NCBI GenBank assembly: GCA_018664075.1
Contig: JABJOY010000044.1
Coordinates: 1-62,577 of the forward strand
Source of the DNA: Porticoccaceae bacterium
Lineage (GTDB): Bacteria; Pseudomonadota; Gammaproteobacteria; Pseudomonadales; Porticoccaceae
DNA: 62,577 bases
Direction of reading: 5' to 3'
The position numbers were made by a program, and so were the translations under genes. Below, piece by piece: positions 2-12,057 of the stretch; within the stretch, counting starts at the first letter, position 1; every line of letters begins with the position of its first letter. The notes under the pieces are model-generated. The model saw only the letters and a list, made by a program, of their open reading frames with translations, had not been told where the DNA came from and did no database searches.

Positions 2-1375
2 GTGGATGTGGGTTCCACTACCATTGCCGCCCATCTCTGTGACTTGGGTTCCGGCGAGGTGCTGGCCAGCGCCAGTCTGATGAATCCGCAGATTCGCTTT
101 GGCGAAGACCTAATGAGTCGCGTGTCTTATGTGATGATGCACCCCGAGGGTGCCGAAGAGATGACCACAGTGATCCGCCAAGCCCTCAATCAGCTGTTTG
201 TTGAAGTGGCCAGACAAATTGATGCCAGTGTTGAGGATATTGTTGAAATCACCTTGGTTGCCAACCCGGTTATGCATCATATTTTGCTGGGTATTAGTCC
301 GGTTGAATTGGGCGGTGCACCTTTTGCCCTGACCACAGATGCAGCAGTGGAAGTGCCAGCCGTTGAAATGGGCTTAACTATTAACCAGGGTGGCCGACTC
401 TATGTACTGCCCTGTATTGCCGGTCATGTTGGCGCCGATACCGCCGGCGTTATTCTTGCCGAAGAACCCCAGAATCAGGACAGCATGACCCTGCTGGTGG
501 ATGTGGGTACCAATGCTGAAATTGTCCTCGGTAATCGACACCGCCTGCTGGCCTGTTCCAGTCCCACTGGCCCCGCCTTCGAGGGTGCTCAGATCAGCTG
601 TGGACAGCGCGCCGCCACCGGAGCAATAGAGCGCGTGCGCATTGACCCGCAAACCTTACAGCCGCGCTTTAAAGTAATTGGTTCAGATCTGTGGTCCGAT
701 GAAGATGGCTTTTTCGAGGCCATTGTCGACCATGGGGTTACCGGCATCTGTGGCTCGGGCATTATCGAAGTGGTGGCCGAGATGTATCTGGCAGGCATAG
801 TCACTGAGGACGGTATTGTTGATGGTGACCTCAGTAGCCGCACTGATCGCGTGATTCAAAACGATCGCACCTGGTCCTATGTTTTACACAGTCCTGAAAA
901 TGACGAAGCGCCAATTGTGGTCACGCAAAATGATATTCGCCAGATACAGTTGGCCAAGGCGGCACTCTATGCCGGGGTCAAATTATTGATGGATCATATT
1001 GGCACAGAAACCGTTGAGCGAATTCGTCTCGCAGGTGCCTTTGGCAGCCATATCAATGTGCAGCATGCTATGGTGTTGGGGTTGATTCCCGATGCGGTTT
1101 TAGAGCAGGTTTCATCTGCGGGCAATGCGGCTGGCACCGGTGCCCGCATCGCACTATTAAATGCCCAGTCCCGAAATACCATTGAAAATCTGGTCAACAA
1201 TATCGAGAAAATTGAAACTGCGATGGAGCCAAAATTCCAAGATTATTTTGTCGATGCTATGGCCTTTCCCAATAAAACCGACGCTTTTCCCAACCTGTTT
1301 TCTGTGGTTGTCAGGCCTGAGCCCAAGGTGGTTGCTGAAAATTCCGGAACCGGTCGCAAACGCCGCCGCCGATAA
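2..1375 (+). CDS. RACo-like corrinoid reductive activator (ASKHA ATPase, DUF4445), 5' partial
   Basis: The reading frame is open at the left edge, so the GTG at 2 is probably an internal Val codon and the N-terminus, where this family usually carries a 2Fe-2S ferredoxin domain, lies outside the window. The visible 457 residues are an ASKHA-fold ATPase: a phosphate loop VDVGSTT at the very start, a second DVGTN loop at residues 167-171, and a GICGSGI motif near 248-254. Family members use ATP to reduce Co(II) corrinoid proteins to the active Co(I) state for methyl transfer. The protein ends in an Arg-rich tail. The next genes are GbdR/GlxA-type regulators and sarcosine oxidase, so I infer a role in corrinoid-dependent demethylation of glycine betaine or a similar methylamine. 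The family call is firm; the substrate is inferred from context. Confidence 0.8.
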   Translation: MDVGSTTIAAHLCDLGSGEVLASASLMNPQIRFGEDLMSRVSYVMMHPEGAEEMTTVIRQALNQLFVEVARQIDASVEDIVEITLVANPVMHHILLGISPVELGGAPFALTTDAAVEVPAVEMGLTINQGGRLYVLPCIAGHVGADTAGVILAEEPQNQDSMTLLVDVGTNAEIVLGNRHRLLACSSPTGPAFEGAQISCGQRAATGAIERVRIDPQTLQPRFKVIGSDLWSDEDGFFEAIVDHGVTGICGSGIIEVVAEMYLAGIVTEDGIVDGDLSSRTDRVIQNDRTWSYVLHSPENDEAPIVVTQNDIRQIQLAKAALYAGVKLLMDHIGTETVERIRLAGAFGSHINVQHAMVLGLIPDAVLEQVSSAGNAAGTGARIALLNAQSRNTIENLVNNIEKIETAMEPKFQDYFVDAMAFPNKTDAFPNLFSVVVRPEPKVVAENSGTGRKRRRR

Positions 1376-1398
1376 ATTGTATCGCGGCAAAATATTTT

Positions 1399-1424
1399 GG
1401 CTTTTGACACAAAAAAGCCTTTTT
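1399..1424 (+). terminator. Probable intrinsic terminator after the RACo-like gene
   Basis: A 7-bp stem GGCTTTT/AAAAGCC (1399-1405 with 1413-1419) is followed directly by five T. It lies 23 bases after the stop codon. The stem is AT-rich, so its strength is uncertain. Confidence 0.5.
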
Positions 1425-1470
1425 ATACAGCAGGTTATGGGCCTATAATCGCGAAATATTGCAAGCTGAA

Positions 1471-1493
1471 TTAAGGCTTTTTTAAAGCCTTAA
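1471..1493 (+). other. Perfect 10-bp inverted repeat in the leader of the GbdR-like gene
   Basis: TTAAGGCTTT (1471-1480), a TTT loop, then AAAGCCTTAA (1484-1493). It lies 54 bases before the regulator's ATG and downstream of a TATAAT-like hexamer at 1444-1449. It could be a second terminator, an RNA hairpin in the leader, or a protein-binding dyad; the sequence does not decide which. The GGCTTT/AAAGCC core is the same as in the hairpin at 1399-1424. Confidence 0.5.
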
Positions 1494-1547
1494 TAAATAA
1501 TAATAAACGCAGTTAATAAAGCGAACTCCCGCGAAAGGATTGTTGAT

Positions 1548-2540
1548 ATGGTCGATACCGTAGATGCAGTTGAGGCCGAATACCCGGATGCAAATGTAAC
1601 CTTGCATGTCGGCTTTCTTATGATGCCTGAGTACACTCTGAGTACCTTTTCCAATGCTATTTCAGTACTGCGTATGGCCAACCGGCTAAGCGGCAGAGAG
1701 CTTTATCGCTACTCTGTATTCAGTCTAGATGGTGAGCCTTTGAGCTCCAGTTCGGGCATTGAAATAAGGCTCGATGGCAGCCTTAAATCAGTGGACGACA
1801 TTAATGTGCTGATTGTGTGCGGTGGCTACAACGTCAAAGATTACTGCACCAAGCCTGTTCTAGATGAACTGCGCGCCATGGCCAAGAAAAAATTTCCTCT
1901 GGGGGGTATGTGCACCGGCAGCTATGTATTGGCTGCCGCCGGTTTGCTGGATGGTTATCGCAGCACCATCCACTGGGAAAATATTGCCAGCATGCGCGAG
2001 CAGTTTCCCAAACTTAATATTTCCTCGAGCCTGTTTGTGATTGACCGCGATCGCTACACCTGCTCCGGTGGCATTAGCTCCATTGATTTGATGCTTAATT
2101 TGGTGGCCAGTATTCACGGCCATCAACTGGTGCAACAGATCTCCGAGCAGTTTACCTGTGACCGGGTGCGCACCGAGAAAGATCCCCAGCGCGCGCCACT
2201 GCAGTATCTGATTGGCGCCAGTCAGCCGCGACTGGTTGATGCCGTCACATTGATGGAAGCCAATATTGAAGAGCCATTAAGTCTCGATGAAGTGGCGGAT
2301 TATGTGGGCATTTCAAGGCGCCAGTTAGAGCGGTTATTTAATCGCTATCTGCACTGTGCGCCGTCCCGCTACTATCTGGAATTGCGACTGTCTCGGGCCA
2401 GATTGCTGCTGTTGCAAACCTCGATACCGGTGATTGATGTGGCTATCAGTTGCGGGTTTTCTACCGCGCCCCATTTCAGTAAATGTTACAGCGACCTGTA
2501 TGGCAAGCCACCGAGCAATGAGCGGCGGGCATTGGCCTAG
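1548..2540 (+). CDS. GbdR-like transcriptional regulator (GATase1 domain plus AraC HTH)
   Basis: This 330-residue protein has the GlxA-family layout: an N-terminal DJ-1/PfpI (class I glutamine amidotransferase-like) domain at about residues 20-190, with a GGMCTGSY nucleophile-elbow-like segment, and a C-terminal AraC/XylS double helix-turn-helix at about 230-325, with ISRRQLERLF and a second helix pair around FSTAPHFSKCY. The C-terminus reads closely like GbdR, the glycine betaine/dimethylglycine-responsive activator of pseudomonads (recognised by eye). An AAAGGA ribosome site precedes ATG 1548. It sits between the RACo-like gene and the sarcosine oxidase operon, so control of both is plausible. 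The family is certain; the ligand is inferred. Confidence 0.85.
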   Translation: MVDTVDAVEAEYPDANVTLHVGFLMMPEYTLSTFSNAISVLRMANRLSGRELYRYSVFSLDGEPLSSSSGIEIRLDGSLKSVDDINVLIVCGGYNVKDYCTKPVLDELRAMAKKKFPLGGMCTGSYVLAAAGLLDGYRSTIHWENIASMREQFPKLNISSSLFVIDRDRYTCSGGISSIDLMLNLVASIHGHQLVQQISEQFTCDRVRTEKDPQRAPLQYLIGASQPRLVDAVTLMEANIEEPLSLDEVADYVGISRRQLERLFNRYLHCAPSRYYLELRLSRARLLLLQTSIPVIDVAISCGFSTAPHFSKCYSDLYGKPPSNERRALA

Positions 2541-2548
2541 GGCACTTG

Positions 2549-3535
2549 TTAGTGCTGGCGATACTCAGTCGGCCTTTTATCAAACTTCCCGCGAAAGGCA
2601 CGGGAGAAGTGTGCCGTATCGGCAAAGCCACATTCCTGGGCAATATCCGTAATCGAACGCTGGGTATTCTGCAGCAGCCACAGCCCGTAACTCAGGCGAA
2701 TCACCCGATAAAACTTTTGCAGGCTCTCGCCGGTGTCGCCAATAAACAGACGTTCAAGTTGGCGTCTGGAAATATTTAATCGCTCGGCAATATCATTGGT
2801 CGACAGGGGCCGACTAAGATTCTGTTCCATCAATAGCAGAGCGCGTTTTACCCATTTATTTTCCACATGATAATCCGAAGTGGGATGAGGCTGTGGTGCA
2901 CTGGCTGGCCTCGGGTTATCCATCACCAGAATGCGCAGACTCTTGCGCGCCCAGCTCTGCCCCAAATGGCGCTCAATAATATAGGCCGCCAGATCCGCAG
3001 CCACTGCACCACCGGCACAAGTAATACGGTCACCATCATCCACAAACAGCTGATCCGCTACCGGCGTAACATCGGTGTAGCGGTCAGTCAGATCCTTGTG
3101 GTGAAACCAGCTGACACAGCAGCGGCGGTTGTGCATCAGCCCGGCGCGGATCATGGCAAATGAACCAGTGCAGAGACCAATAATGGGAATGTGGGCCTGA
3201 TCGGCGCTCTGCAAATAATCAACTAGGTGCTGACTGCCATTTAAGGTCTCTGGCAGCAGTCCGCCGACCACCACAATATAGTCAAATTCCGCCGGGTCGC
3301 GATAGGTTTCCCAGGGTTGTACGGTCACTCCGGAACTGGAGTTAATAGGGTTTAGATTGGGGCCCATAATCGTCCAGCGGCAGTGGACCTGTTCACTGTG
3401 ATCCCCTTCGTCAGCAGCCAGGCGCAGTGCATCAATAAACGCGGAAAAAGGCAGCAGGGTAAAGCTTGGCATCAGCACAAAACCCACGGATAAACTGGGG
3501 GAGGCCTGGGGGCTACTGGGGGCGGATTTGGGCAT
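2549..3535 (-). CDS. Second GlxA-family AraC-type regulator, divergent from soxBDAG
   Basis: From ATG 3535 this gives 328 residues with an N-terminal DJ-1/PfpI-like domain (SVGFVLMPSF start, GLCTGSF elbow) and a C-terminal AraC HTH (LNISRRQLERLF, FADTAHFSRAF). The frame stays open upstream to a GTG at 3649, adding 38 residues, but these are unlike the family N-terminus, so the internal ATG is preferred. It is transcribed divergently from soxB and convergently with the GbdR-like gene, from which it is only 8 bp away. Its position suggests a local regulator of sarcosine oxidase, comparable to SouR of Pseudomonas; that role is inferred. The two GlxA proteins are clearly different and not a recent duplication. 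Confidence 0.8.
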   Translation of the reverse strand: MPKSAPSSPQASPSLSVGFVLMPSFTLLPFSAFIDALRLAADEGDHSEQVHCRWTIMGPNLNPINSSSGVTVQPWETYRDPAEFDYIVVVGGLLPETLNGSQHLVDYLQSADQAHIPIIGLCTGSFAMIRAGLMHNRRCCVSWFHHKDLTDRYTDVTPVADQLFVDDGDRITCAGGAVAADLAAYIIERHLGQSWARKSLRILVMDNPRPASAPQPHPTSDYHVENKWVKRALLLMEQNLSRPLSTNDIAERLNISRRQLERLFIGDTGESLQKFYRVIRLSYGLWLLQNTQRSITDIAQECGFADTAHFSRAFRGKFDKRPTEYRQH

Positions 3536-3756
3536 AACTTGAATATCTGGTAAAAGGAACATTTTAGGTTTGCCGACGCGTATATACAACAGATTCCCCG
3601 CCGCTGTTGAATCAAAGTGCCATTTTGCCCAATTTTTAACCGATTTCACTGGTTTTTGTCGTTTTTAGCACTGTGATTGTCAGTTTTGTTCTATCGACCT
3701 CCCTTATAAATTGCTCCAATGCCGGTCATCACCAGTCATTCCGTAGAGTTGAGACA

Positions 3757-5007
3757 ATGAAAAAATACTCTGGCTTTAGCCTGTTTAAAAATGCCCTGAG
3801 CTACCATGAAAACTGGCAGAAACTATGGCGCAGTCCCAAGCCCAAAGACTACTACGATGTGATCGTGGTAGGCGGTGGAGGTCATGGTCTGGCCACGGCT
3901 TATTACCTGGCCAAAGTCCACGGCATTACCAAAGTCGCAGTGATCGAAAAAGGCTATCTGGGCGGCGGTAATACAGCGCGCAATACCACCATTATTCGCT
4001 CCAACTATCTGTGGGACGAGGCAGCCCAGCTCTACGAACTGTCCCTTAAGCTCTGGGAAGGGCTGAGTCAGGAGCTTAACTATAATGTGATGTTCAGTCA
4101 GCGGGGTGTGCTTAACCTTGGCCACAATCTGCAGGATATGCGGGATATTGAGCGCCGGGTCAATGCCAATCGCCTCAATGGCATCGACGGGGAAGTGGTA
4201 ACGCCGGAGCGCGTTAAAGAAATTGCCCCATTAATAAATATTTCAAAAGATTGCCGCTATCCGATTCTCGGTGCCTCTTGGCAGCCACGGGGCGGCACCG
4301 CCCGCCACGATGCCGTGGCCTGGGGTTATGCCCGGGGCGCAGATGCCCTGGGAGTGGATCTGATTCAAGAGACCGAAGTCATCGGCATCCGCCGCAAAAA
4401 CGGTTCTGTGGTGGGGGTTGAAACCACCCAGGGCTTTATTGGATCGCGCAAAGTGGCCTGTGTTACCGCCGGCAACTCTGGGGTGGTAGCTGCAATGGCT
4501 GGCCTGCGACTGCCCGTGGAGTCGCGGCCATTGCAGGCGCTGGTCTCTGAGCCGGTCAAACCCTGCCTAGATACAGTGGTTATGTCCAATGCCGTGCACG
4601 GCTATATCAGTCAGTCTGACAAGGGAGATCTGGTGATTGGCGCCGGTGTCGACGGCTACAACGGCTACGGCCAGCGCGGTTCATTCCATGTTATTGAACA
4701 TACATTGCAGGCGATCTGCGAACTGTTTCCAGCTTTTAGCCGGGTGCGCATGAATCGCCAGTGGGGCGGCGTGGTGGATACCTGCCCGGATGCCTGCCCT
4801 ATTATCAGCAAGACCTCGGTCGACGGGCTTTACTTTAACTGCGGCTGGGGCACCGGCGGTTTTAAAGCCACCCCAGGCTCTGGCTATGTGTTTGCCGACA
4901 CCGTGGCCAATGACCATCCCCACCCCTTGGCGGCGGCCTTTAATGTTGACCGATTTAATACTGGAGCGCTGATTGATGAACATGGCGCTGCCGGTGTGGC
5001 TCACTGA
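3757..5007 (+). CDS. soxB: Sarcosine oxidase, beta subunit
   Basis: The beta subunit of heterotetrameric sarcosine oxidase oxidatively demethylates sarcosine to glycine, passing the one-carbon unit to tetrahydrofolate and making H2O2. The 416 residues from ATG 3757 equal the usual SoxB length; the frame extends upstream to 3673, but that region contains the promoter and matches nothing in the family. An FAD-binding [14 protein letters not shown] loop lies near residues 38-52. His184, in the [12 protein letters not shown] motif, is the likely site of covalent flavin attachment by family analogy. The C-terminal [14 protein letters not shown] motif is typical. It is the first gene of soxBDAG, 14 bp before soxD. 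The divergent GlxA regulator probably controls it. Confidence 0.95.
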
Positions 5008-5021
5008 GAGAACTATTTCCT

Positions 5022-5318
5022 ATGCTATTAATTCACTGTCCCCATTGCCGGGAAGATCGCGAAGAAGAAGAGTACAGCTACAGTGGCGAAGCCCATATTG
5101 TGCGGCCTCTGGAGCCAGAGGCCCTGAGTGATCAAGAATGGGGCGACTACCTGTTTTTCCGCAAAAACCCCAAAGGTATTCACCATGAAATGTGGTACCA
5201 CGCTGTGGGCTGTCGGCGCTACTTTTACGCCACCCGCAATACTTTGAGCTACGAGATAATAGAGACCTACAAAGTAGGTGAGCAGCCTCAGGTCAGCGCC
5301 CAGGGAGCAGCACAATGA
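5022..5318 (+). CDS. soxD: Sarcosine oxidase, delta subunit
   Basis: This 98-residue protein opens with a CPHC zinc ligand pair (residues 6-9) and the GEAHIVRP segment of SoxD; a later Cys/His pair in WYHAVGCRRYF completes the usual zinc site. The delta subunit is a small structural zinc subunit of the heterotetramer. Its TGA stop overlaps the soxA ATG in an ATGA junction (5315-5318), so translation is probably coupled. The identification is firm from length, motifs and position. Confidence 0.95.
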   Translation: MLLIHCPHCREDREEEEYSYSGEAHIVRPLEPEALSDQEWGDYLFFRKNPKGIHHEMWYHAVGCRRYFYATRNTLSYEIIETYKVGEQPQVSAQGAAQ

Positions 5319-8300
5319 GTCAGATCAATCGTCTCAACACCGGCGCGCGCACAGACAGCACCAGTCGAATCAACTTTACCTACAACGGCAAACAGATGCA
5401 GGGGGTGGTAGGCGATACCCTGGCCTCGGCCCTATTAGCCAATGGCGTTAATGTGGTGGGTCGCAGCTTCAAGTACTCCCGCCCAAGGGGCATAGTCGGC
5501 CATGGTGCCGAAGAGCCCAATGCCATTATGCAGATCGGTTCCGGCGCAGCCACTGTGCCCAATTTAAAAGCCACTCAGGTTGAACTCTACGAAGGGCTTG
5601 AATCTGCATCGGTCAATGGCTGGCCCAATGTAAACTTTGATTTGATGAGCATCACCGGCTGGTTTGGGCGCATGATGCCACCGGGGTTTTACTACAAAAC
5701 CTTTATGTATCCCGCCAAACTATGGATGACTTACGAGCATTTTATTCGCAAGGCAGCAGGTCTGGGCAGCGCACCGGTTCAGGATGACCCGGACAGCTAC
5801 GACAAACTGAATCAGCACTGCGATGTGCTGGTCGTGGGCGCAGGTCCTGCCGGACTGGTCGCGGCCCGTGAAGCGGCCCGGGCTGGAGCCAGAGTGATTA
5901 TTGCCGACGAACAAAGTGAATTTGGCGGCAGTTTGCTCGCCTCAATTAACAGTATTGATGGCCAGGTAGCCACCAGCTGGGTCGATGAACTGGTCGCCGA
6001 GCTAGAGAGCTTTAGCAATGTGCAAACATTGCCCCGCAGCACAGCATTTGGCTATTACGATCATAACTTCCTCGGTATTTTGCAGCGCCGCACCGACCAT
6101 CTGGGCATCAGTGCGGACTCAGGCTCCCGCCAGCGTCTGCACCGTGTGCGTGCCAAGCGAGTAATACTGGCCACCGGCGCCTTTGAGCGGCCGCTGGTAT
6201 TTGCGCAAAATGATATTCCCGGGGTGATGCAGGCATCCTCCGTGTCCACCTATATCAATCGCTACGGCGTGGCTCCGGGCAACAGAATGATACTGTTTAC
6301 CACCAATGATAACGCCTACCAGACTGCTATCGATTGGCACAGAGCTGGTCGCGCCGTAGTCGCAGTGGTCGATAGCAGATCTGCACCCAGTGGCGAGATT
6401 GTGGCAGTGGCACAGGAAATGGGTATTCGAGTAATAGCAGGCTCCGGGGTGATTGAAGCCCAGGGCGGCAAGCGGGTCAGACGCGCATTGGTGGCACCCC
6501 TCAATGGAGATGGCACAGAGATTACCGGCGTTGTCGAGAAATTAGCCTGTGATCTGATAGCCTGTTCCGGCGGCTGGAGCCCGGCCATTCATCTCAGCTC
6601 CCACACTGGTGCCAAGCCAGTCTGGGATGAGACTATTATTGGCTTTAAGCCAGGTCAGTCAGTACAAAAAGAACGCTCCGCAGGGGCCTGTGGCGGCACC
6701 TATAGTCTTGCGGGCTGTATTGCCGAAGGCGCCAGTGCAGGGGCAGAGGCGGCTAAATTAGCAGGCTGTGGTGATGGTACTGTGCATTTCCCCATGCCCC
6801 AGATTAAAGAATTTAGTGAACAGCCAGCCCAGGCATTATTTCTGGTGCCCCATACCAAGGCTACCAGCAGAGCTCCCAGTCAGTTTGTCGATATGCAGCT
6901 GGATGTCAGTGCCAGTGGCATTGAACTGGCCGTGCGCGAAGGCTTTAAGTCGGTGGAGCATATTAAACGCTATACCGCCATGGGCTTTGGTACGGATCAG
7001 GGCAAGCTGGGTAATATCAATGGTATGGCGATACTGGCCAATGCCCTGGGCCAGAGTATTGAACAGACTGGTACCACCATCTTTCGTCCATCCTATAGCC
7101 CGACCACCTTTGGCGCTATTGCCGGGGCCGATGTCGGTGCATTGTTTGATCCCGAACGCTACACCGCCGTGCATCGCTGGCACCAGGAGCAGGGCGCAGC
7201 GTTTGAGGATGTGGGCCAGTGGAAGAGGCCCTGGTACTTCCCTCGGGGCGGTGAGTCCATGCAGGATGCGGTTAATCGCGAATGCCTGGCGGTGCGCAAC
7301 AGCGTCGGCATACTAGATGCCAGCACCTTGGGCAAAATTGATATTCAGGGTCCGGATGCAGCGGAATTTATTACCCGCATGTACACCAACTCCTACCTTA
7401 AATTAGCGCCGGGCAAGTGCCGCTACGGAGTGATGCTAAAAGAAGATGGTATGATCTTCGATGATGGCGTCTGCGCCTGCATCGGCGACAACCATTACCT
7501 GATGTTTACCACCACCGGTGGAGCTGCTGGCGTATTGGCCTGGTTGGAGCTCTGGCAGCAGACCGAATGGCCAGACTTGCAAGTCTACTTCACCTCCGTC
7601 ACCGACCATTGGACAACCGCCACTATCACTGGCCCCAACGCCCGCAAAGTGCTGGCTAAAGTCTGTGACGATATAGAGTTAGCCAATGATGCATTTCAGT
7701 TTATGGACTGGCGTGATGGCACGGTTGCCGGCGTAGCGGCGCGGGTCTTCCGCATCAGCTTTACCGGCGAGCTAACCTACGAAATAAATGTGCCTGCCCA
7801 TTATGGCCGCCATGTCTGGGAAGCCCTGATTGCAGCTGGTGAAGAATTTGATATTACCCCCTACGGCACCGAGAGTATGCATGTGCTGCGCGCAGAGAAG
7901 GGCTTTATTATTGTCGGTCAGGATACAGATGGTTCTATGACCCCCGCGGATATGAATATGGACTGGGTGGTGGGCAAAAATAAAACCTTTAGTTTTATTG
8001 GCAAACGCTCATTGCAGCGCAGTGACTCGGTGCGTAAAAACCGCAAGCAGCTGGTAGGTCTAAAAACAGTTAATGGTACTCAGGTTCTGCCCGAGGGCGC
8101 GCAGGTGGTATTTGACCCTGAGCAAAAAATCCCCATGTCCATGCAGGGGCATGTGACGTCCAGTTACTTTAGCTCTAATCTGGGGCATTCCATTGCGCTG
8201 GCCGTGGTAAAAGGAGGTCATGGTCTGCTGGGCAAGACAGTGTACTGTCCATTGGCCGATGGTCGCACCATAGCCGCTGAAATTGTGAGTTCGGTTTTCT

Positions 8301-8335
8301 ACGATCCAAAAGGGGAGCGTCAAAATGTCGAATAA
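5315..8335 (+). CDS. soxA: Sarcosine oxidase, alpha subunit
   Basis: A 1006-residue protein of standard SoxA length. The first 110 residues have a ferredoxin-like fold signature without cluster cysteines, as in other SoxA proteins. A dinucleotide-binding motif VVGAGPAGLVAAREAARAG lies near residues 172-190 and leads the NAD/FAD domain. The C-terminal 400 residues form a GcvT-like folate-binding aminomethyltransferase domain (SVGILDASTLGKIDIQGP onward), which transfers the methylene group to tetrahydrofolate. It overlaps soxD by 4 bp and soxG by 11 bp. Nothing is broken or truncated. Confidence 0.95.
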   Translation: MSQINRLNTGARTDSTSRINFTYNGKQMQGVVGDTLASALLANGVNVVGRSFKYSRPRGIVGHGAEEPNAIMQIGSGAATVPNLKATQVELYEGLESASVNGWPNVNFDLMSITGWFGRMMPPGFYYKTFMYPAKLWMTYEHFIRKAAGLGSAPVQDDPDSYDKLNQHCDVLVVGAGPAGLVAAREAARAGARVIIADEQSEFGGSLLASINSIDGQVATSWVDELVAELESFSNVQTLPRSTAFGYYDHNFLGILQRRTDHLGISADSGSRQRLHRVRAKRVILATGAFERPLVFAQNDIPGVMQASSVSTYINRYGVAPGNRMILFTTNDNAYQTAIDWHRAGRAVVAVVDSRSAPSGEIVAVAQEMGIRVIAGSGVIEAQGGKRVRRALVAPLNGDGTEITGVVEKLACDLIACSGGWSPAIHLSSHTGAKPVWDETIIGFKPGQSVQKERSAGACGGTYSLAGCIAEGASAGAEAAKLAGCGDGTVHFPMPQIKEFSEQPAQALFLVPHTKATSRAPSQFVDMQLDVSASGIELAVREGFKSVEHIKRYTAMGFGTDQGKLGNINGMAILANALGQSIEQTGTTIFRPSYSPTTFGAIAGADVGALFDPERYTAVHRWHQEQGAAFEDVGQWKRPWYFPRGGESMQDAVNRECLAVRNSVGILDASTLGKIDIQGPDAAEFITRMYTNSYLKLAPGKCRYGVMLKEDGMIFDDGVCACIGDNHYLMFTTTGGAAGVLAWLELWQQTEWPDLQVYFTSVTDHWTTATITGPNARKVLAKVCDDIELANDAFQFMDWRDGTVAGVAARVFRISFTGELTYEINVPAHYGRHVWEALIAAGEEFDITPYGTESMHVLRAEKGFIIVGQDTDGSMTPADMNMDWVVGKNKTFSFIGKRSLQRSDSVRKNRKQLVGLKTVNGTQVLPEGAQVVFDPEQKIPMSMQGHVTSSYFSSNLGHSIALAVVKGGHGLLGKTVYCPLADGRTIAAEIVSSVFYDPKGERQNVE

Positions 8336-8963
8336 TATTAAACAGGAAACGCCCCTGCAGTATTTCCACAAGCTGTCCAGTCATGCCAACAGCCAAAGAG
8401 CAGAGCTATTTAATGGCGAGGTGGAGTTTGCTCTGGTGGTTAAAGAGGCTCCAATCAGCACCTTCCTAAGTCTGCGGGGCAATGGCGCCGATAATGCCTT
8501 TTGTGCAGCGGTTGCCGAGGTACTTGGGGTTCCAGTCCCCACAGAGCCGGGTACCTATCACAGCAGTAAAGAAGCTAGTATTTATTGGCTGGGGCCAGAT
8601 GAATGGATGCTGTTCAGTTCCATGGACGCCAGCAGCCTGGAAGCCAGACTAAGAGCAAGTCTGTCTGGGCATATTGCCATTGCCGATATCAGCGGCGGGC
8701 AGACATTGATCAATCTGCGAGGTGACCAGCTGGCCTTGGAAGTCGTGCTTAAAAAATCTTCAGTCTATGATTTTGGCGCCTGGGCAGATGCCAGTGCTAA
8801 TGCTGGCCGCTGTGTCCAGAGCTCCTTTGGCAAAGCATCGGCTGTGGTAGCGAATAAATCTGACGGCTCCTACGATCTTATTTTCCGGCGCAGTTATGCC
8901 GACTATATAGCCCAGTGGCTGCTCCATGCAGGAGAGGAGTTCGGTTGTCGCATTGAGAGTTGA
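8325..8963 (+). CDS. soxG: Sarcosine oxidase, gamma subunit
   Basis: This 212-residue protein is the folate-domain-like gamma subunit that packs against SoxA. It starts 11 bp inside soxA and closes the operon. The IYWLGPDEWMLF segment at about residues 86-97 and the C-terminal FRRSYADYIAQWLLHAGEEFG are characteristic. No serine hydroxymethyltransferase, formyl-THF deformylase or folD follows, so the one-carbon unit must be handled by genes elsewhere. Confidence 0.92.
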   Translation: MSNNIKQETPLQYFHKLSSHANSQRAELFNGEVEFALVVKEAPISTFLSLRGNGADNAFCAAVAEVLGVPVPTEPGTYHSSKEASIYWLGPDEWMLFSSMDASSLEARLRASLSGHIAIADISGGQTLINLRGDQLALEVVLKKSSVYDFGAWADASANAGRCVQSSFGKASAVVANKSDGSYDLIFRRSYADYIAQWLLHAGEEFGCRIES

Positions 8964-8978
8964 GCGAGGACGCCGAGT

Positions 8979-9037
8979 AAAAAAATGACCCCAATACTGC
9001 CGCGGTTAGCTAAGGCGTGAGCTGTGCGCTCGGGGTC
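8979..9037 (-). terminator. Possible long-loop terminator for the Cys-rich lipoprotein gene
   Basis: Read on the minus strand, GACCCC (9037-9032) can pair with GGGGTC (8992-8987), followed by an A and then a T-run (the A-run at 8979-8985 on the plus strand). The loop is about 39 bases, which is long for an intrinsic terminator, so this is tentative. Confidence 0.35.
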
Positions 9038-9038
9038 C

Positions 9039-9071
9039 AAAGTACTACAGGTTAAAAAGTACTACAGGTTA
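9039..9071. repeat. Tandem 16-bp direct repeat
   Basis: AAAGTACTACAGGTTA occurs at 9039-9054 and again at 9056-9071, one base apart. The stop codon of the minus-strand lipoprotein gene (9069-9071) lies in the second copy. It looks like a recent small duplication at the 3' end of the gene. Confidence 0.85.
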
Positions 9072-9491
9072 TCCAGCCTCCCATCCGCCACAGCTCATCG
9101 CAGGCTGCTCACAGCGGCGGCATTCCTGACTGCGCAACTGGCAGGTTTTCAGGCACCGATGAAATCTACTGATACAGGAACGATTTAACGCCCCCAATTC
9201 CCTGCAGCTCTCAGGCTGGTTTGCCGCATAAATAGTGCGCCGATCAATAAGATCGCAATAGCTGCGCAACAACAGCTGTTGCCGCTGGCTGCTTGTTTGG
9301 GGGTTCGGGTTAAGTCCGATATTGATTAATTCTCGCTGGGTATAAACCGCACTGCGCACCAGATTGTAGTGGTCAACGGAGTGATCCGTTGATGCTAGAT
9401 TTTTTGAACAGCCTGATAGTATGATGATCGATAGTCCTGGGATTATTAGACTTGGGACTAACAACAGCTTAAAAAAAATATCCTTTCGCAC
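9069..9491 (-). CDS. Small Cys-rich putative lipoprotein, unknown function
   Basis: I do not recognise a family. The 140 residues from a GTG start at 9491 (GGAG ribosome site about 9 bases upstream) begin with a positively charged then hydrophobic signal peptide ending in a lipobox LSGC at about residues 25-28, so the mature protein should be a lipid-anchored envelope protein. The mature part holds eight cysteines, mostly in the last 60 residues (including ESCREL, RCLKTC, ECRRC, MSCGG), which suggests disulphides or metal binding. It is divergent from the first XRE-type gene and shares its upstream region. The lipobox and the ribosome site support it as a real gene. Confidence 0.6.
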   Translation of the reverse strand: MRKDIFFKLLLVPSLIIPGLSIIILSGCSKNLASTDHSVDHYNLVRSAVYTQRELINIGLNPNPQTSSQRQQLLLRSYCDLIDRRTIYAANQPESCRELGALNRSCISRFHRCLKTCQLRSQECRRCEQPAMSCGGWEAG

Positions 9492-9624
9492 ATTGACGCT
9501 CCTTGCTAAACTTTCCGTTCAATTCCATTCCATTCGGCGCCATAGTCAAGCTAGGCGGTTTGATCACAGGAGGAATATGCCAAGCTTGGCCATCAAGGTC
9601 AAGGCAGAAAGTCGACAAAATGTT

Positions 9625-9873
9625 ATGCAACGCCCAAATCCAGACTCAATTTATTATCAGGAATTTATCCAACTGCAAAACAAATTGCGCGACAGAGTCC
9701 TGTCGTTACGCAAAAGCCGCGGCTTAGTTCAGGAAGATATGGCTGAATATGAACTATCGGTTCGCCAGTACCAACGGATGGAGCAAGATCCCACCGCCAT
9801 TGTTTCCCTGTGGCAAGTATTCAAGCTGGCTAAGGCCCATAACCTCAATATCCATGAGCTGCTCGACCTATAG
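9625..9873 (+). CDS. Small XRE-type helix-turn-helix protein, copy 1
   Basis: An 82-residue protein, almost all of it an XRE/Cro-like helix-turn-helix: a predicted helix at about residues 15-33, VQEDMAEYELSVRQYQRMEQ as the core, and the ending LAKAHNLNIHELLDL. The start at ATG 9625 was chosen because the paralogue at 10024 begins at the same MQRPN sequence. An in-frame ATG at 9577, preceded by AGGAGG only 3 bases away, would add 16 residues and cannot be excluded. The protein has no other domain, so it is probably a small DNA-binding regulator. It is divergent from the lipoprotein gene and 150 bp before its paralogue. Confidence 0.75.
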   Translation: MQRPNPDSIYYQEFIQLQNKLRDRVLSLRKSRGLVQEDMAEYELSVRQYQRMEQDPTAIVSLWQVFKLAKAHNLNIHELLDL

Positions 9874-9941
9874 CCATTGATGAGGCTATTGTTAGACGCC
9901 GATTAATACGGCAATGTTTGATAGGCCCTGATTTTTTATTA

Positions 9942-9961
9942 ACGCGTCAAGCTAGACGTGT
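9942..9961. promoter_or_regulatory. Operator-like dyad before XRE copy 2, half of it repeated before copy 1
   Basis: ACGCGTC-AAGCTA-GACGTGT is an imperfect 20-bp dyad (6 of 7 arm pairs). Its core GTCAAGCTAGACG (9946-9958) recurs with one change at 9545-9557 (GTCAAGCTAGGCG) before copy 1. The two elements lie 78 and 80 bases before the respective ATGs. That matched spacing suggests a shared binding site, perhaps for the XRE proteins themselves; this is inference. Confidence 0.45.
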
Positions 9962-10023
9962 CGATTGCCATAGGGCTATGCCAATCTCGCTTCACTGCGA
10001 TAAAGGGAGATTAGAGCACAGTC

Positions 10024-10272
10024 ATGCAACGTCCAAATTCAGACTCAGCCTACTACAGCGAATTTATAGAACTTCAGGTAAATCTGTGTAAGAAAATTGT
10101 CGATCTGCGCAAAAGCCGCAAACTGGTGCAGGAAGATATGGCCGACTATGAACTGTCGGTTCGTCAGTATCAGCGAATGGAGCAGGATCCCACGGCAATT
10201 GTCAGCCTGTGGCAGGTGTTTAAAATTGCCAAAGCCCACAATCTGGACTTGAAACAATTGTTTGATTTGTAA
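10024..10272 (+). CDS. Small XRE-type helix-turn-helix protein, copy 2
   Basis: A tandem paralogue of the gene at 9625: the same 82-residue length, the same MQRPN start, and a nearly invariant core ELSVRQYQRMEQDPTAIVSL. Differences cluster in the first helix (KLRDRVLSLRKSRG against NLCKKIVDLRKSRK) and in the last residues. The duplication is therefore old enough for divergence outside the recognition region, while the DNA-contact region stayed the same. Translation would start at ATG 10024 with a weak GAG ribosome site. It precedes the alkaline phosphatase gene by 150 bp on the same strand; whether it regulates that gene is unknown. Confidence 0.78.
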   Translation: MQRPNSDSAYYSEFIELQVNLCKKIVDLRKSRKLVQEDMADYELSVRQYQRMEQDPTAIVSLWQVFKIAKAHNLDLKQLFDL

Positions 10273-10277
10273 CCTGT

Positions 10278-10319
10278 AACTTATAGCCCTTAATTTATAG
10301 TCCGTAATTTATAAATTTT
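10278..10319. repeat. Three tandem 14-bp AT-rich repeats upstream of alkaline phosphatase
   Basis: AACTTATAGCCCTT (10278-10291), AATTTATAGTCCGT (10292-10305) and AATTTATAAATTTT (10306-10319): units 1 and 2 match at 11 of 14 positions, unit 3 less well. Nine bases further on, CTATCAT-AAAA-CTG (10328-10341) resembles the left half of a PhoB box (CTGTCAT-N4-CTGTCAT), but the right half is poor. Confidence 0.5.
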
Positions 10320-10352
10320 TATCAAAACTATCATAAAACTGGTGCACACTAG

Positions 10353-10401
10353 CGCCCTGGCTGGCAGCGGCCATATTTGCTTTTTACCAGGGCGGTTGCC
10401 C
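10353..10401 (+). other. Alternative hairpins in the alkaline phosphatase leader
   Basis: CGCCCTGG (10353-10360) can pair with CCAGGGCG (10387-10394). The same GGGC (10390-10393) can instead pair with GCCC (10398-10401) across a GGTT loop. The two folds exclude each other. The region ends 21 bases before the phosphatase ATG. It may be a structured 5' leader; no known class was recognised. Confidence 0.35.
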
Positions 10402-10422
10402 TAATGGCGGAAACGGACATCT

Positions 10423-12057
10423 ATGAAAAATTTACAGCGGGCCCCATGGCTTGTCTTTTTACTCGGGCTGACATCCTGCGATTCAGTCGACAGCGTTGCT
10501 ACCACCACTGACTTGGCTCATGCAGATAACAGCTGGTATCAGAATGCAGCAACCCAACTCCAGCAGCGTAACAAGGCATGGCAAAATATCAGCAGCACAG
10601 CAGGGGGAGCAAAAAATATTATCCTCTTTGTAGGCGACGGTATGAGCTTTGCCACGGTCACCGCCGCGCGCATATTAGAGGGTCAGCAGCGGGGAATGCC
10701 CGGTGAAGAGAACAGCCTTAGCTTTGGCAACTTCCCGTTTACCGGTCTGGCGAAAACTTATAATGTCGACTCCCAGACAGCAGATTCCGCCGGGGCCATG
10801 ACCGCCATTATCACTGGTGTCAAAACCGATAAAGGTCTGATTTCCGTGGATGAAAATACCAACCGAGGTGACTGCAGTTCGGCAGCCGGCAATGGTTTGA
10901 CCACTGCTCTGGAACTGGCGGAAATTGCTGGCCTTGCCACCGGCATCGTATCCACCACAAGAATCACACATGCCACACCGGCAGCCACCTATGCCAAATC
11001 AGCGGACCGTGACTGGGAAGATAATTCCGTTATGCCAGCAAAGGCGATAGCGCAGGGCTGCGAAGATATTGCCTCCCAGCTGGTTAATTTTGAAAGCAAC
11101 CTTGAGGCTCGCTTTGAAGGTTTGGACACCAATGGTATTGAAGTCATGATGGGCGGCGGGCGGCGGCATTTTCTGCCCGCGCAGGCCGCGGCCAATAGCC
11201 ATGACGCCAGCTCAGCCATTGAAGGTGACCGCACCGATGGGCGCAACCTGATCACCGAATGGAAAACCAGCTATCCAGCGGGCAACTATGTGGATGACCA
11301 AAAAGGCTTTGATGCCCTGCAACCGGATGCGGTAGAGCAAGTCTTTGCCCTGTTCAATGAATCCCATATGCTCTACGAGGCAGATCGGGGTAATGATATA
11401 GCCGGAGAGCCGTCCTTGACCGAGATGACCACCAAGGCAATCGATATTCTCGACAGCAACCAGCAGGGCTTTTTTCTCATGGTGGAATCTGGCCGTATCG
11501 ATCACGGCCACCATGCCAACAGTGCTTACAATGCACTGACCGACACCATTGAATTCTCCCGTGCCGTGCAGGCCGCTGTGGACAATACAGACTCCAGTGA
11601 AACATTGATTATCGTCACCGCAGACCATGGCCATGTATTTACTATTGCCGGTTACCCGAAGCGCGGCAATCCCATTCTCGGCAAGGTCATTAAAATTGAT
11701 GCAGACAGCCCGGCACTGGCCCATGACGGCATGCCCTACAGCACCCTAGGCTATGCCAGCGGCCCGGGCTTCCATGATTTTGGCAACGAGACTAATGCTG
11801 ACAAAGTGTATTACAGCAAGGTCCATAAAGGGCGGGCTGATCTTACTGAAGTTGATACCCAGGCCAGTGGCTTTCATCAAGAGGCATTGGTGCCCATGGG
11901 GTGGGAAACCCATTCCGGTGAAGATGTGGCTATCTATGCCACAGGCCCGGGCGCGCACCTGGTGTCAGGTACCCATGAGCAGAGCGTTATTTTTCATATT
12001 ATGAATTTTGCCGGCAACCTGGTGCCCAGAGCAGAGACGGCTCTGCAAACGCCCTGA
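10423..12057 (+). CDS. Alkaline phosphatase, PhoA superfamily, lipoprotein
   Basis: A 544-residue phosphomonoesterase. The signal peptide ends in LTSC (residues 16-19), so it is probably lipid-anchored in the envelope. The metal and catalytic motifs of the alkaline phosphatase family are present in order: FVGDGM (first metal Asp), TADSAGAMTA (catalytic Ser in DSA), SGRIDHGHHAN (metal Asp/His) and TADHGH (metal Asp/His). It is longer than E. coli PhoA (about 470), like many marine family members. It would release phosphate from organic esters outside the cytoplasm. A half-matching Pho box and structured DNA lie upstream. It converges with the acyltransferase gene 35 bp away. Confidence 0.9.
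   Translation: MKNLQRAPWLVFLLGLTSCDSVDSVATTTDLAHADNSWYQNAATQLQQRNKAWQNISSTAGGAKNIILFVGDGMSFATVTAARILEGQQRGMPGEENSLSFGNFPFTGLAKTYNVDSQTADSAGAMTAIITGVKTDKGLISVDENTNRGDCSSAAGNGLTTALELAEIAGLATGIVSTTRITHATPAATYAKSADRDWEDNSVMPAKAIAQGCEDIASQLVNFESNLEARFEGLDTNGIEVMMGGGRRHFLPAQAAANSHDASSAIEGDRTDGRNLITEWKTSYPAGNYVDDQKGFDALQPDAVEQVFALFNESHMLYEADRGNDIAGEPSLTEMTTKAIDILDSNQQGFFLMVESGRIDHGHHANSAYNALTDTIEFSRAVQAAVDNTDSSETLIIVTADHGHVFTIAGYPKRGNPILGKVIKIDADSPALAHDGMPYSTLGYASGPGFHDFGNETNADKVYYSKVHKGRADLTEVDTQASGFHQEALVPMGWETHSGEDVAIYATGPGAHLVSGTHEQSVIFHIMNFAGNLVPRAETALQTP

What the first reader, a model, noticed from the sequence alone, without database searches (positions are those of the whole stretch)
2..8963. 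RACo-like corrinoid activator next to GbdR-type regulators and sarcosine oxidase: possible aerobic corrinoid route for glycine betaine
Seen: an ASKHA/DUF4445 protein, two GlxA/GbdR-like regulators and soxBDAG are contiguous. Known: RACo proteins reactivate corrinoid methyltransferase partners, mostly in anaerobes, and GbdR and Sox act in betaine to sarcosine to glycine catabolism, in which aerobic pseudomonads use the Rieske-type oxygenase GbcAB instead. Inference: this organism may demethylate glycine betaine (or another methylamine) with a cobalamin methyltransferase while living aerobically, with one-carbon units going to folate both there and in sarcosine oxidase. The missing methyltransferase and corrinoid protein should lie just left of the window.
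Basis: partly seen in the sequence, partly recalled or inferred. Interest (0 to 1): 0.75.

Follow-up and report, generated by a model that had tools for sequence, protein, structure and literature searches.

The report
Aerobic B12-dependent glycine betaine demethylation operon
This ocean bacterium's DNA carries the right-hand end of a vitamin-B12-based gene set that probably strips methyl groups from the common algal osmolyte glycine betaine in oxygenated water; the route was shown in another marine bacterium in 2025, so this is a new case with some new twists rather than a new system.

Summary
In detail: the window is a contig end of a SAR92-clade genome that cuts a RACo gene, followed by a GbdR-like regulator, a second AraC/GlxA-type regulator and soxBDAG. 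The predicted left side exists: MttB/MtgB and corrinoid-protein genes precede RACo in 28 of 32 SAR92 relatives (the other four contigs end too early). This genome has mttB and a DMG-dehydrogenase-like gene on contig C23 and fhs on C66; about 4.8 kb before the window is unassembled. No GbcA reaches its cut-off in the genus (0 of 47). But the idea is no longer new: Mausz et al. (PNAS 2025, PMC12478193) showed this MtgBCD route in Ruegeria pomeroyi. Added here: (1) a GbdR-type 21/22-bp direct repeat in both mtg and sox promoters; (2) canonical MetH beside Mtg in 25 of 34 MttB-bearing SAR92 genomes, this one included, so probably a catabolic module uncoupled from methionine synthesis; (3) in-place swapping of the methyl-THF oxidase; (4) no CbiC over cut-off (0 of 47), so B12 is probably imported. 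Function is inferred; nothing was assayed.

The parts
2..1375 (+). RACo-type reductive activator of corrinoid protein, 3' part (middle + ASKHA C-terminal domain); N-terminal [2Fe-2S] and linker parts lie beyond the contig edge
   Evidence: Pfam PF17651 155.8 bits, PF14574 313.5 bits; closest solved relative of the full-length H231 homologue is 3ZYY, 307.5 bits
1548..2540 (+). GbdR-like AraC/DJ-1 regulator, probable activator of the mtg and sox operons
   Evidence: NF052371 GbdR 431.1 bits, curated cut-off 480
2549..3649 (-). second GlxA/GbdR-like AraC regulator, divergent from soxB (start may be internal, near 3535)
   Evidence: NF052371 183 bits; PF01965 + PF12833
3658..3682 (+). predicted GbdR-type operator: direct repeat GTCG / GTCA with 21-bp period, between the divergent regulator and soxB
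   Evidence: only match of GTCG[TC]TTT-N13-GNCR in the 62.6 kb window; same element in the fhs/DMG intergenic region of this genome, C66:605; 30 of 33 SAR92 sox promoters tested have it at 21 or 22 bp, all but the deep-branching L088, L089, L096
3757..5007 (+). soxB, sarcosine oxidase beta
   Evidence: TIGR01373 717 bits, cut-off 529
5022..5318 (+). soxD, sarcosine oxidase delta
   Evidence: TIGR01374 120 bits, cut-off 116.5
5315..8335 (+). soxA, sarcosine oxidase alpha (folate-binding GCV_T domain)
   Evidence: TIGR01372 1471 bits, cut-off 1164
8325..8963 (+). soxG, sarcosine oxidase gamma
   Evidence: PF04268 89.7 bits, over cut-off 21; TIGR01375 90.5 bits, under its cut-off 144

Best explanation
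The window holds the distal half of one glycine-betaine (GB) regulon. Glycine betaine is demethylated by a pyrrolysine-free MttB-family enzyme (MtgB) onto a corrinoid protein (MtgC). A pterin-binding methyltransferase (MtgD) passes the methyl group to tetrahydrofolate. RACo, probably with DUF1638, re-reduces corrinoid that has oxidised to the Co(II) state, which should happen often in an aerobe. A MetF-type enzyme oxidises CH3-THF to CH2-THF, and Fhs, encoded divergently upstream, can release formate with ATP gain. Dimethylglycine is taken to sarcosine by the DAO+GCV_T protein and sarcosine to glycine by SoxBDAG, both loading CH2-THF. A GbdR-like activator probably switches on both operons through a shared 21/22-bp direct-repeat operator. 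In this genome canonical MetH is also present and no separate homocysteine methyltransferase (MtgE/BHMT) is found, so the module is probably purely catabolic. Shown here by sequence: gene content and order (own genome or relatives, as stated), domain families, co-occurrence, repeat element. Inferred: substrate, reaction order, direction of the MetF step, B12 import, control by GbdR, and mtgC/mtgD/metF in this genome.
For: MttB in the own genome at C23:4-1365, 692 bits. C66, C23 and C94 align colinearly to H231 at 1-1621, 1481-5188 and 10000-11400. MtgB and MtgC are left of RACo in 28 of 32 SAR92 loci and the 4 exceptions end too early on the left. Domain assignments. MtgB matches the solved 'Glycine betaine methyltransferase' 9YCE at 429 bits and 4YYC at 758 bits. 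RACo is found in 31 of 47 genus genomes, all of which also have MttB (34 of 47); SoxA in 32 of 34 MttB+ against 1 of 13 MttB-. GbcA: 0 of 47 over cut-off, against the positive control G072 at 688 bits. Repeat element: mtg promoters 25 of 27, sox promoters 20 of 33 at 21 bp plus 10 of 33 at 22 bp, 4 elsewhere in 639 kb, 5 of 12,000 shuffled promoters; the architecture matches P. aeruginosa CdhR half-sites with a 15-bp spacer, said to be very similar to GbdR's (PMC5806209). MetH in own genome, and the only PF02574 match there is MetH itself. The same pathway is supported by genetics and proteomics in R. pomeroyi (PMC12478193).
Against: mtgC, mtgD, metF and the RACo N-terminus of this genome are not in the assembly. 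No biochemical test of a SAR92 protein came up in my searches. The GbdR-like protein is below the curated GbdR cut-off. Fifteen of 47 genus genomes, not this one, carry a nearly full-length GbcA-like Rieske protein at 267-338 bits, far below the 670 cut-off, whose substrate is unknown. One order-level relative, G063, has a distant RACo relative (42% identity) but no MttB. The repeat was found in the same promoters in which it is counted, and related loci are not independent; it is absent upstream of gbdR itself (0 of 31) and near the second sox cluster.
Confidence: 0.86

Rival explanations
1. The corrinoid module demethylates another quaternary amine (proline betaine, carnitine, choline, trimethylamine), and its neighbourhood with sox is only a convenience of C1 metabolism.
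For: MttB-superfamily members with other substrates are known (PMC8604678, PMC12155760: search listing only). Some genus members carry a second, divergent MttB of 356-365 bits.
Against: The adjacent DAO+GCV_T and SoxBDAG genes fit the next two demethylations of GB. MtgB matches the GB methyltransferase 9YCE at 429 bits and the TMA enzyme 7XCL at only 119 bits. A GbdR-like regulator and a shared repeat element join both operons. This genome shows only one MttB.
Confidence: 0.09
2. The module is mainly a split methionine synthase (dual-function form of Mausz et al.), with GB demethylation secondary.
For: MtgC and MtgD are dual-function in R. pomeroyi (PMC12478193). No MetE hit in this genome; in the genus only three weak hits of 26-31 bits, in G007, G016, G019. 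G032 and G042 (92 and 94% complete) lack a MetH match, have MttB and RACo, and a 294-aa homocysteine-methyltransferase-like gene.
Against: This genome and 24 further of the 34 MttB+ genus members (25 of 34 in all) have the MetH activation domain; the own MetH shows all MetH domains. A BHMT/MtgE-like length class was seen in only six genus members.
Confidence: 0.06
3. RACo here serves the canonical MetH, and its place next to sox is incidental.
For: MetH needs reductive reactivation (recalled); MetH is present in the genome.
Against: The MetH carries its own PF02965 reactivation domain. Twelve MetH+ genus members lack both MttB and RACo. In the genus RACo always co-occurs with MttB (31 of 31).
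Confidence: 0.02
4. GB is demethylated by a Rieske oxygenase in this organism and the corrinoid cluster is vestigial.
For: Seven Rieske-type oxygenase hits in the genome.
Against: The best scores 134 bits against the 670-bit GbcA cut-off, and the six listed hits align to the first half of the model only. The corrinoid operon is conserved across the clade.
Confidence: 0.03

Closest known systems
MtgBCD glycine betaine demethylase of aerobic marine bacteria (Ruegeria pomeroyi DSS-3; Mausz et al. 2025, PMC12478193)
   Same: PF06253 MtgB, PF02310 MtgC, pterin-binding MtgD, RamA and DUF1638 reactivation proteins, MetF2 for CH3-THF, DMG and sarcosine demethylation; that paper reports co-location of the later demethylation genes with mtgBCD in marine Alpha-, Gamma- and Deltaproteobacteria
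   Different: All genes in two neighbouring operons with a GbdR-like regulator and a shared repeat element; divergent fhs; canonical MetH kept and no MtgE found in this genome; CH3-THF oxidase of two exchangeable kinds. SAR92 and HTCC2207, Porticoccaceae, GbdR have no hit in its main text; its supplement was not seen
MtgABC of Desulfitobacterium hafniense (anaerobe; described in PMC12478193)
   Same: MttB-family GB:corrinoid methyltransferase, corrinoid protein, CH3-cob:THF methyltransferase; PDB 9YCE/2QNE at 429-430 bits (that these are the D. hafniense protein is recalled)
   Different: Probably an aerobe here; different MtgC lineage for the marine forms according to PMC12478193; coupled to oxidative sox and DMG steps
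RACo / AcsV (3ZYY; Carboxydothermus origin recalled)
   Same: Fer2, linker, middle and ASKHA domains in order in H231
   Different: Acts, by context, on a methyltransferase corrinoid protein and not on the CO dehydrogenase/acetyl-CoA synthase corrinoid protein; 386 bits against a cut-off of 800 for AcsV
GbdR regulon of Pseudomonas aeruginosa
   Same: GbdR-like protein; direct-repeat half-sites with a period of 21 bp; control of GB and sarcosine genes
   Different: Would control a corrinoid demethylase in place of GbcAB; half-sites GTCG/GNCR; below the curated GbdR score
MTHFR of Sphingobium SYK-6 that runs towards CH2-THF (review PMC13001107; PDB 7XG9, source organism recalled)
   Same: Slot-B protein of some SAR92 operons matches 7XG9 at 159 bits
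   Different: Here it would take methyl groups from GB and not from lignin aromatics; not in the window's own nearest relatives, which have slot A

Membership tests
Aerobic corrinoid GB demethylase (MtgBCD kind) | MttB-family methyltransferase without pyrrolysine codon | tested here: met
   own C23, 692 bits over 90% of the model, no internal stop; full 517-aa frame in H231 and HTCC2207
Aerobic corrinoid GB demethylase (MtgBCD kind) | Dedicated corrinoid protein (MtgC) and CH3-THF methyltransferase (MtgD) beside it | tested here: inconclusive
   present in relatives, but the stretch is unassembled in this genome
Aerobic corrinoid GB demethylase (MtgBCD kind) | Reductive activator | tested here: met
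   RACo 2-1375
Aerobic corrinoid GB demethylase (MtgBCD kind) | No GbcA oxygenase | tested here: met
   0 of 47 genus genomes over the 670-bit cut-off; G072 is the positive control
Aerobic corrinoid GB demethylase (MtgBCD kind) | Activity: growth on GB that depends on these genes | not testable with these tools
   needs an experiment
Dual-function MtgBCDE (methionine synthase + GB demethylase) | MetH absent and separate homocysteine-binding MtgE present | tested here: not met
   MetH on C7; only PF02574 match in the genome is MetH
RACo | Middle and ASKHA C-terminal domains | tested here: met
RACo | N-terminal [2Fe-2S] domain | tested here: inconclusive
   beyond the contig edge here; present in H231 (Fer2 23.0 bits, cut-off 21)
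Heterotetrameric sarcosine oxidase | SoxB, SoxD, SoxA, SoxG in one operon | tested here: met
   SoxG passes Pfam but not the NCBIfam cut-off
GbdR (NCBIfam equivalog NF052371) | Curated score cut-off 480 bits | tested here: not met
   431 bits, best family by far; filed as GbdR-like only

The most novel reading that the evidence does not exclude
In SAR92 the corrinoid GB demethylase is a purely catabolic module, uncoupled from methionine synthesis and wired by a GbdR-type operator to sarcosine oxidase. Its CH3-THF-oxidising slot has been refilled at least twice within the clade, by a PF12225+MetF pair (MetV/MetF-like, recalled) or by an SYK-6-like MTHFR. In one subclade that lost MetH and has no MetE, the same module has probably taken over methionine synthesis with a 291-305 aa homocysteine methyltransferase. 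The genus would then be a natural experiment on how the dual-function enzyme arises, in organisms that must import B12.
Probability: 0.4. Interest if true: 0.6.

Novelty: new member of a known kind. Interest (0 to 1): 0.45.

Why it matters
Glycine betaine is a major algal osmolyte, and SAR92 is a phytoplankton-bloom clade, so B12-dependent demethylation links betaine turnover to B12 supply. The genus has members with and without a detected MetH that carry the same operon, which makes the proposed link between GB demethylation and methionine synthesis testable among close relatives, some of them cultured (recalled). The repeat element gives a direct, cheap test of whether the corrinoid and oxidative steps are one regulon.

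Tried and rejected
Rejected: GbcA in this genome (7 Rieske hits; six scanned one by one; the listed six score 99-134 bits over the first half of the model, the seventh falls below that capped list, and the tally shows G072 as the only genome over cut-off). Rejected: RamA-type activator; the protein scores better to the RACo/AcsV model than to TIGR04270. Led nowhere: folds of DUF1638 (pLDDT 87; 50 of 62 candidate sequences aligned) and of the PF13769 protein (pLDDT 93; 51 of 63 aligned) gave no solved-structure match at E <= 0.001, so their roles stay unknown. The second sox cluster (C71) shows no match of the strict pattern. A first promoter alignment failed through a coordinate error, and one search counted some truncated loci wrongly (regions assigned to the wrong gene in L045, L053, L054, L060), with strict hit thresholds, replace its counts. 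dgcAB, transporters, choline oxidation and MetF copy number were not searched. The literature search for SYK-6 MetF by name found nothing; one search found a review.
Full report
What is in the window. The window is contig C94, 1-62577, of a 2.06 Mb, 104-contig, 92.8%-complete genome. Its nearest named relatives are SAR92-clade Porticoccaceae: H231 at 95% identity in RACo, HTCC2207 at 85% and MOLA455 at 84%.

What lies to the left. The contig ends inside RACo, so relatives were used. In H231 (L031) and HTCC2207 (L037) the order is: divergent fhs, a DAO+GCV_T protein of 837 aa (DMG-dehydrogenase-like), MttB 517 aa, corrinoid protein 232 aa, DUF1638, PF13769, a PF12225 protein, a PF02219 MetF, a pterin-binding methyltransferase, RACo, GbdR-like, GlxA-like (-), soxBDAG (the operon domain scans were run on H231, the fhs scans on the own genome and HTCC2207). 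One search confirmed 106 relatives and kept the best 80; 32 of these 80 belong to the main SAR92 group (L031-L061, L108). Of the 32, 28 carry MtgB and MtgC left of RACo and 27 the DMG-dehydrogenase-like gene; L033, L034, L035 and L060, without MtgB, end within about 3.7 kb upstream of the RACo match. Over all 80 loci, truncated ones included, the tally was MtgD 73, PF13769 67, MtgB 66, DUF1638 66, MtgC 59, DMG-like 54, SoxB 47, slot-A MetF 45, GbdR-like 43, SoxA 43; two Roseovarius loci (L109, L110) show RACo alone.

The same genes in this genome. Searching the whole genome with 11.4 kb of H231 gave three contigs whose ends fall in order: C66 (H231 1-1621, with fhs), C23 (1481-5188, with the DMG-dehydrogenase-like gene and about 90% of mttB) and C94, the window (10000-11400). 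H231 positions 5189-9999 have no match, so mtgC, DUF1638, PF13769, the MetF slot, mtgD and the RACo N-terminus are missing from the assembly. That the genome has them is inferred from synteny.

Co-occurrence in the genus. Of 47 genomes of the genus (own included), RACo is in 31, MttB in 34, SoxA in 33. All 31 RACo genomes have MttB; the three MttB genomes without RACo (G001, G006, G030) are 74-84% complete. SoxA is in 32 of 34 MttB+ and 1 of 13 MttB- genomes (Fisher p = 2e-8, not corrected for relatedness). Among the 30 genus genomes at 90% completeness or more, 21 have MttB and all 21 have RACo. Outside the genus, of 29 order-level genomes G049, G054 and G056 have both, and G063 has a 42%-identical RACo relative without MttB.

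Substrate. MtgB scores 758 bits with 4YYC (deposited as putative trimethylamine methyltransferase; S. meliloti origin recalled), 429 bits with 9YCE, deposited as glycine betaine methyltransferase, and 119 bits with 7XCL, a trimethylamine methyltransferase. With DMG-dehydrogenase-like and sox genes as neighbours, GB is the most economical substrate. GbcA is not found: with NF058607 no genus genome passes 670 bits (0 of 47), while the order-level genome G072 does at 688. Against this reading, 15 of 47 genus genomes, not this one and all of them MttB+, carry a Rieske protein that aligns to nearly the full GbcA model at 267-338 bits. Its substrate is unknown.

A shared repeat element. The soxB/regulator intergenic region and the fhs/DMG intergenic region share a direct repeat, GTCG[TC]TTT-N13-GNCR, with a 21-bp period. 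Thirty-five loci were given. It occurs in 25 of 27 usable mtg promoters and 20 of 33 sox promoters at 21 bp; 10 further sox promoters have it at 22 bp, and the three without either are the deep-branching L088, L089 and L096. It occurs in 0 of 31 gbdR promoters and 4 times in 639 kb elsewhere. Other periods from 13 to 29 bp gave 0 in these promoters except 14 bp (2 sox), 15 bp (6 mtg) and 25 bp (2 mtg). Mononucleotide-shuffled promoters matched the 21-bp form in 5 of 12,000 trials. In this genome it is at window 3658-3682, its only match in the window, and at C66:605. P. aeruginosa CdhR half-sites contain GGTCGC with a 15-bp spacer, a 21-bp period, and are described as very similar to those of GbdR, SouR and ArgR (PMC5806209, passages read). 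The motif was found in these promoters before being counted in them, so the spacing decoys and the low background carry the weight.

Relation to methionine synthesis. Mausz et al. report that MtgC and MtgD double as methionine synthase in R. [quoted passage not shown] abstract, sections 5, 7, 8 and passages read). In SAR92, 25 of 34 MttB+ genomes have the MetH activation domain, the own genome included (C7, all MetH domains, cut at a contig end), and 9 do not (G024, G026, G030, G031, G032, G036, G037, G040, G042; of these only G032 and G042 are at least 90% complete, so some absences may be assembly gaps, and G036 has a PF02574 fragment that may be a MetH start). PF01717 (MetE) gave hits in only three genus genomes, 26-31 bits in 381-386 aa frames of G007, G016 and G019, over the 21-bit cut-off but far from the 490-530 bits of canonical MetE; none is in a MetH-less genome. 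A 291-305 aa homocysteine-methyltransferase-like protein is in G020, G024, G030, G032, G042 and G045; the two scanned (G042, G045) score 119 bits against a 215-bit cut-off. A BHMT-like class of 351-368 aa is in G003, G006, G007, G015, G020 and G027; the one scanned (G003) passes PRK07534 at 441 bits against 338, G006 and G020 are 87-96% identical to it or each other, and the other three are assigned by length and PF02574 score alone. So the module looks uncoupled from methionine synthesis in this lineage and possibly recoupled in a MetH-less subclade.

The CH3-THF oxidation slot. Between PF13769 and mtgD most SAR92 operons hold a PF12225 + PF02219 pair (slot A). L052, L054-L058, L060, L061, L088, L096 and L108 hold instead, at the same place, a 311-337 aa protein (slot B; L089 is cut by its contig end). 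The slot-B protein has no BLAST hit to the slot-A MetF at E 0.001 and weak MTHFR scores (three scanned: 24.6 and 26.5 bits in Pfam, none for L052); the one from L061 matches 7XG9, a 5,10-methylenetetrahydrofolate reductase, at 159 bits. 7XG9 is, from memory, the SYK-6 enzyme; a review describes the SYK-6 MTHFR as preferring CH3-THF oxidation (PMC13001107, one passage read). On a tree of 66 of the 80 loci built from MtgB, MtgC, MtgD and RACo, slot B needs 4 changes, at least 3 forced by starred branches; one of them, L093, is a Chloroflexota locus where the hit is not in the slot. Inside SAR92 that leaves at least two swaps, because L052/L054/L108 nest within slot-A rows (quick search, SH-aLRT only, operon genes only, odd letter make-up flagged for L088 and L096). 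Two Halieaceae loci, L086 and L091, keep only C-terminal remnants of the slot-A MetF. Replacement of an enzyme by a distant relative in one fixed slot argues that CH3-THF oxidation is a working step of the operon.

Cobalamin. CbiC (PF02570), a marker of corrin-ring synthesis, is over cut-off in 0 of 47 genus genomes; the own genome has one sub-threshold 19-bit hit. A SAR92 draft genome from the Amundsen Sea was reported without B12 synthesis genes (PMC4620155, passages). On the other side, PMC6383258 lists cobalamin synthesis among properties that abundant polar Gammaproteobacteria clades, SAR92 being one of three named, largely share with a Roseobacter cluster (passage). GB use by these bacteria should probably depend on imported B12; one marker does not show it.

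What is known and what is new. The central idea of the finding, aerobic corrinoid demethylation of GB feeding folate, is established in another organism since 2025, and co-location of such genes in Gammaproteobacteria is reported there. Searches for SAR92 with glycine betaine, demethylation or sarcosine oxidase and for marine Gammaproteobacteria with these terms (12 of 40 papers listed) found no paper, in the open-licence library held here, whose listing or passages describe this operon in SAR92. PMC6383258 says that assimilation of GB is described in its supplement, which I did not see, so prior mention is possible. I file it as a new member of a known kind, with a variant reading in the novel case.

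Noticed in passing
G000:C71 26521-31882 (L202:6522-11883): A second soxBDA-type cluster with a formyltransferase-domain (PurU-like) gene, without a match of the strict repeat pattern; its substrate is unknown.
   Followed up: partly
L052, L054-L058, L060, L061, L088, L096, L108 (about 7400-8450 in most): In-place replacement of the PF12225+MetF pair by a distant SYK-6-like MTHFR.
   Followed up: partly
L086:8216-8404 and L091:3775-3888: C-terminal remnants (63 and 38 aa) of the slot-A MetF between PF13769 and mtgD: apparent gene loss in Halieaceae.
   Followed up: no
G006, G015, G020, G023, G027, G049: A second, divergent MttB-family protein (356-366 bits); several of the same genomes carry a BHMT-like protein. 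Possibly another quaternary amine.
   Followed up: no
A1 (DUF1638, 50 sequences), L031:6064-6681: DUF1638 in these operons has four invariant cysteines and two invariant histidines (C17, C40, H46, C77, H99, C100 in L031); a metal or redox role in corrinoid reactivation would fit. Predicted fold has no clear solved relative.
   Followed up: partly
A2 (PF13769, 51 sequences), L031:6696-7001: 'Virulence factor' PF13769 is a conserved companion of the corrinoid operon (67 of 80 loci), with an invariant WRDIP motif; the family name is probably misleading here.
   Followed up: partly
G021:C6:75818-76072: A SoxA gene in a genus member (75% complete) without MttB or RACo.
   Followed up: no
15 genus genomes, e.g. 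G023:C82:31609-32823: Nearly full-length GbcA-like Rieske proteins well below the GbcA cut-off, all in MttB-bearing genomes; substrate unknown.
   Followed up: no
L090, L093 (Chloroflexota MAGs), L054 (record titled Flavobacteriaceae): Operon pieces in records labelled Chloroflexota may mean wide transfer; L054 is SAR92-like DNA in a record labelled Flavobacteriaceae, probably a mislabelled or mixed bin.
   Followed up: no
10423-12057: Alkaline phosphatase (PF00245, 420 bits) downstream of the sox operon, not part of it.
   Followed up: no
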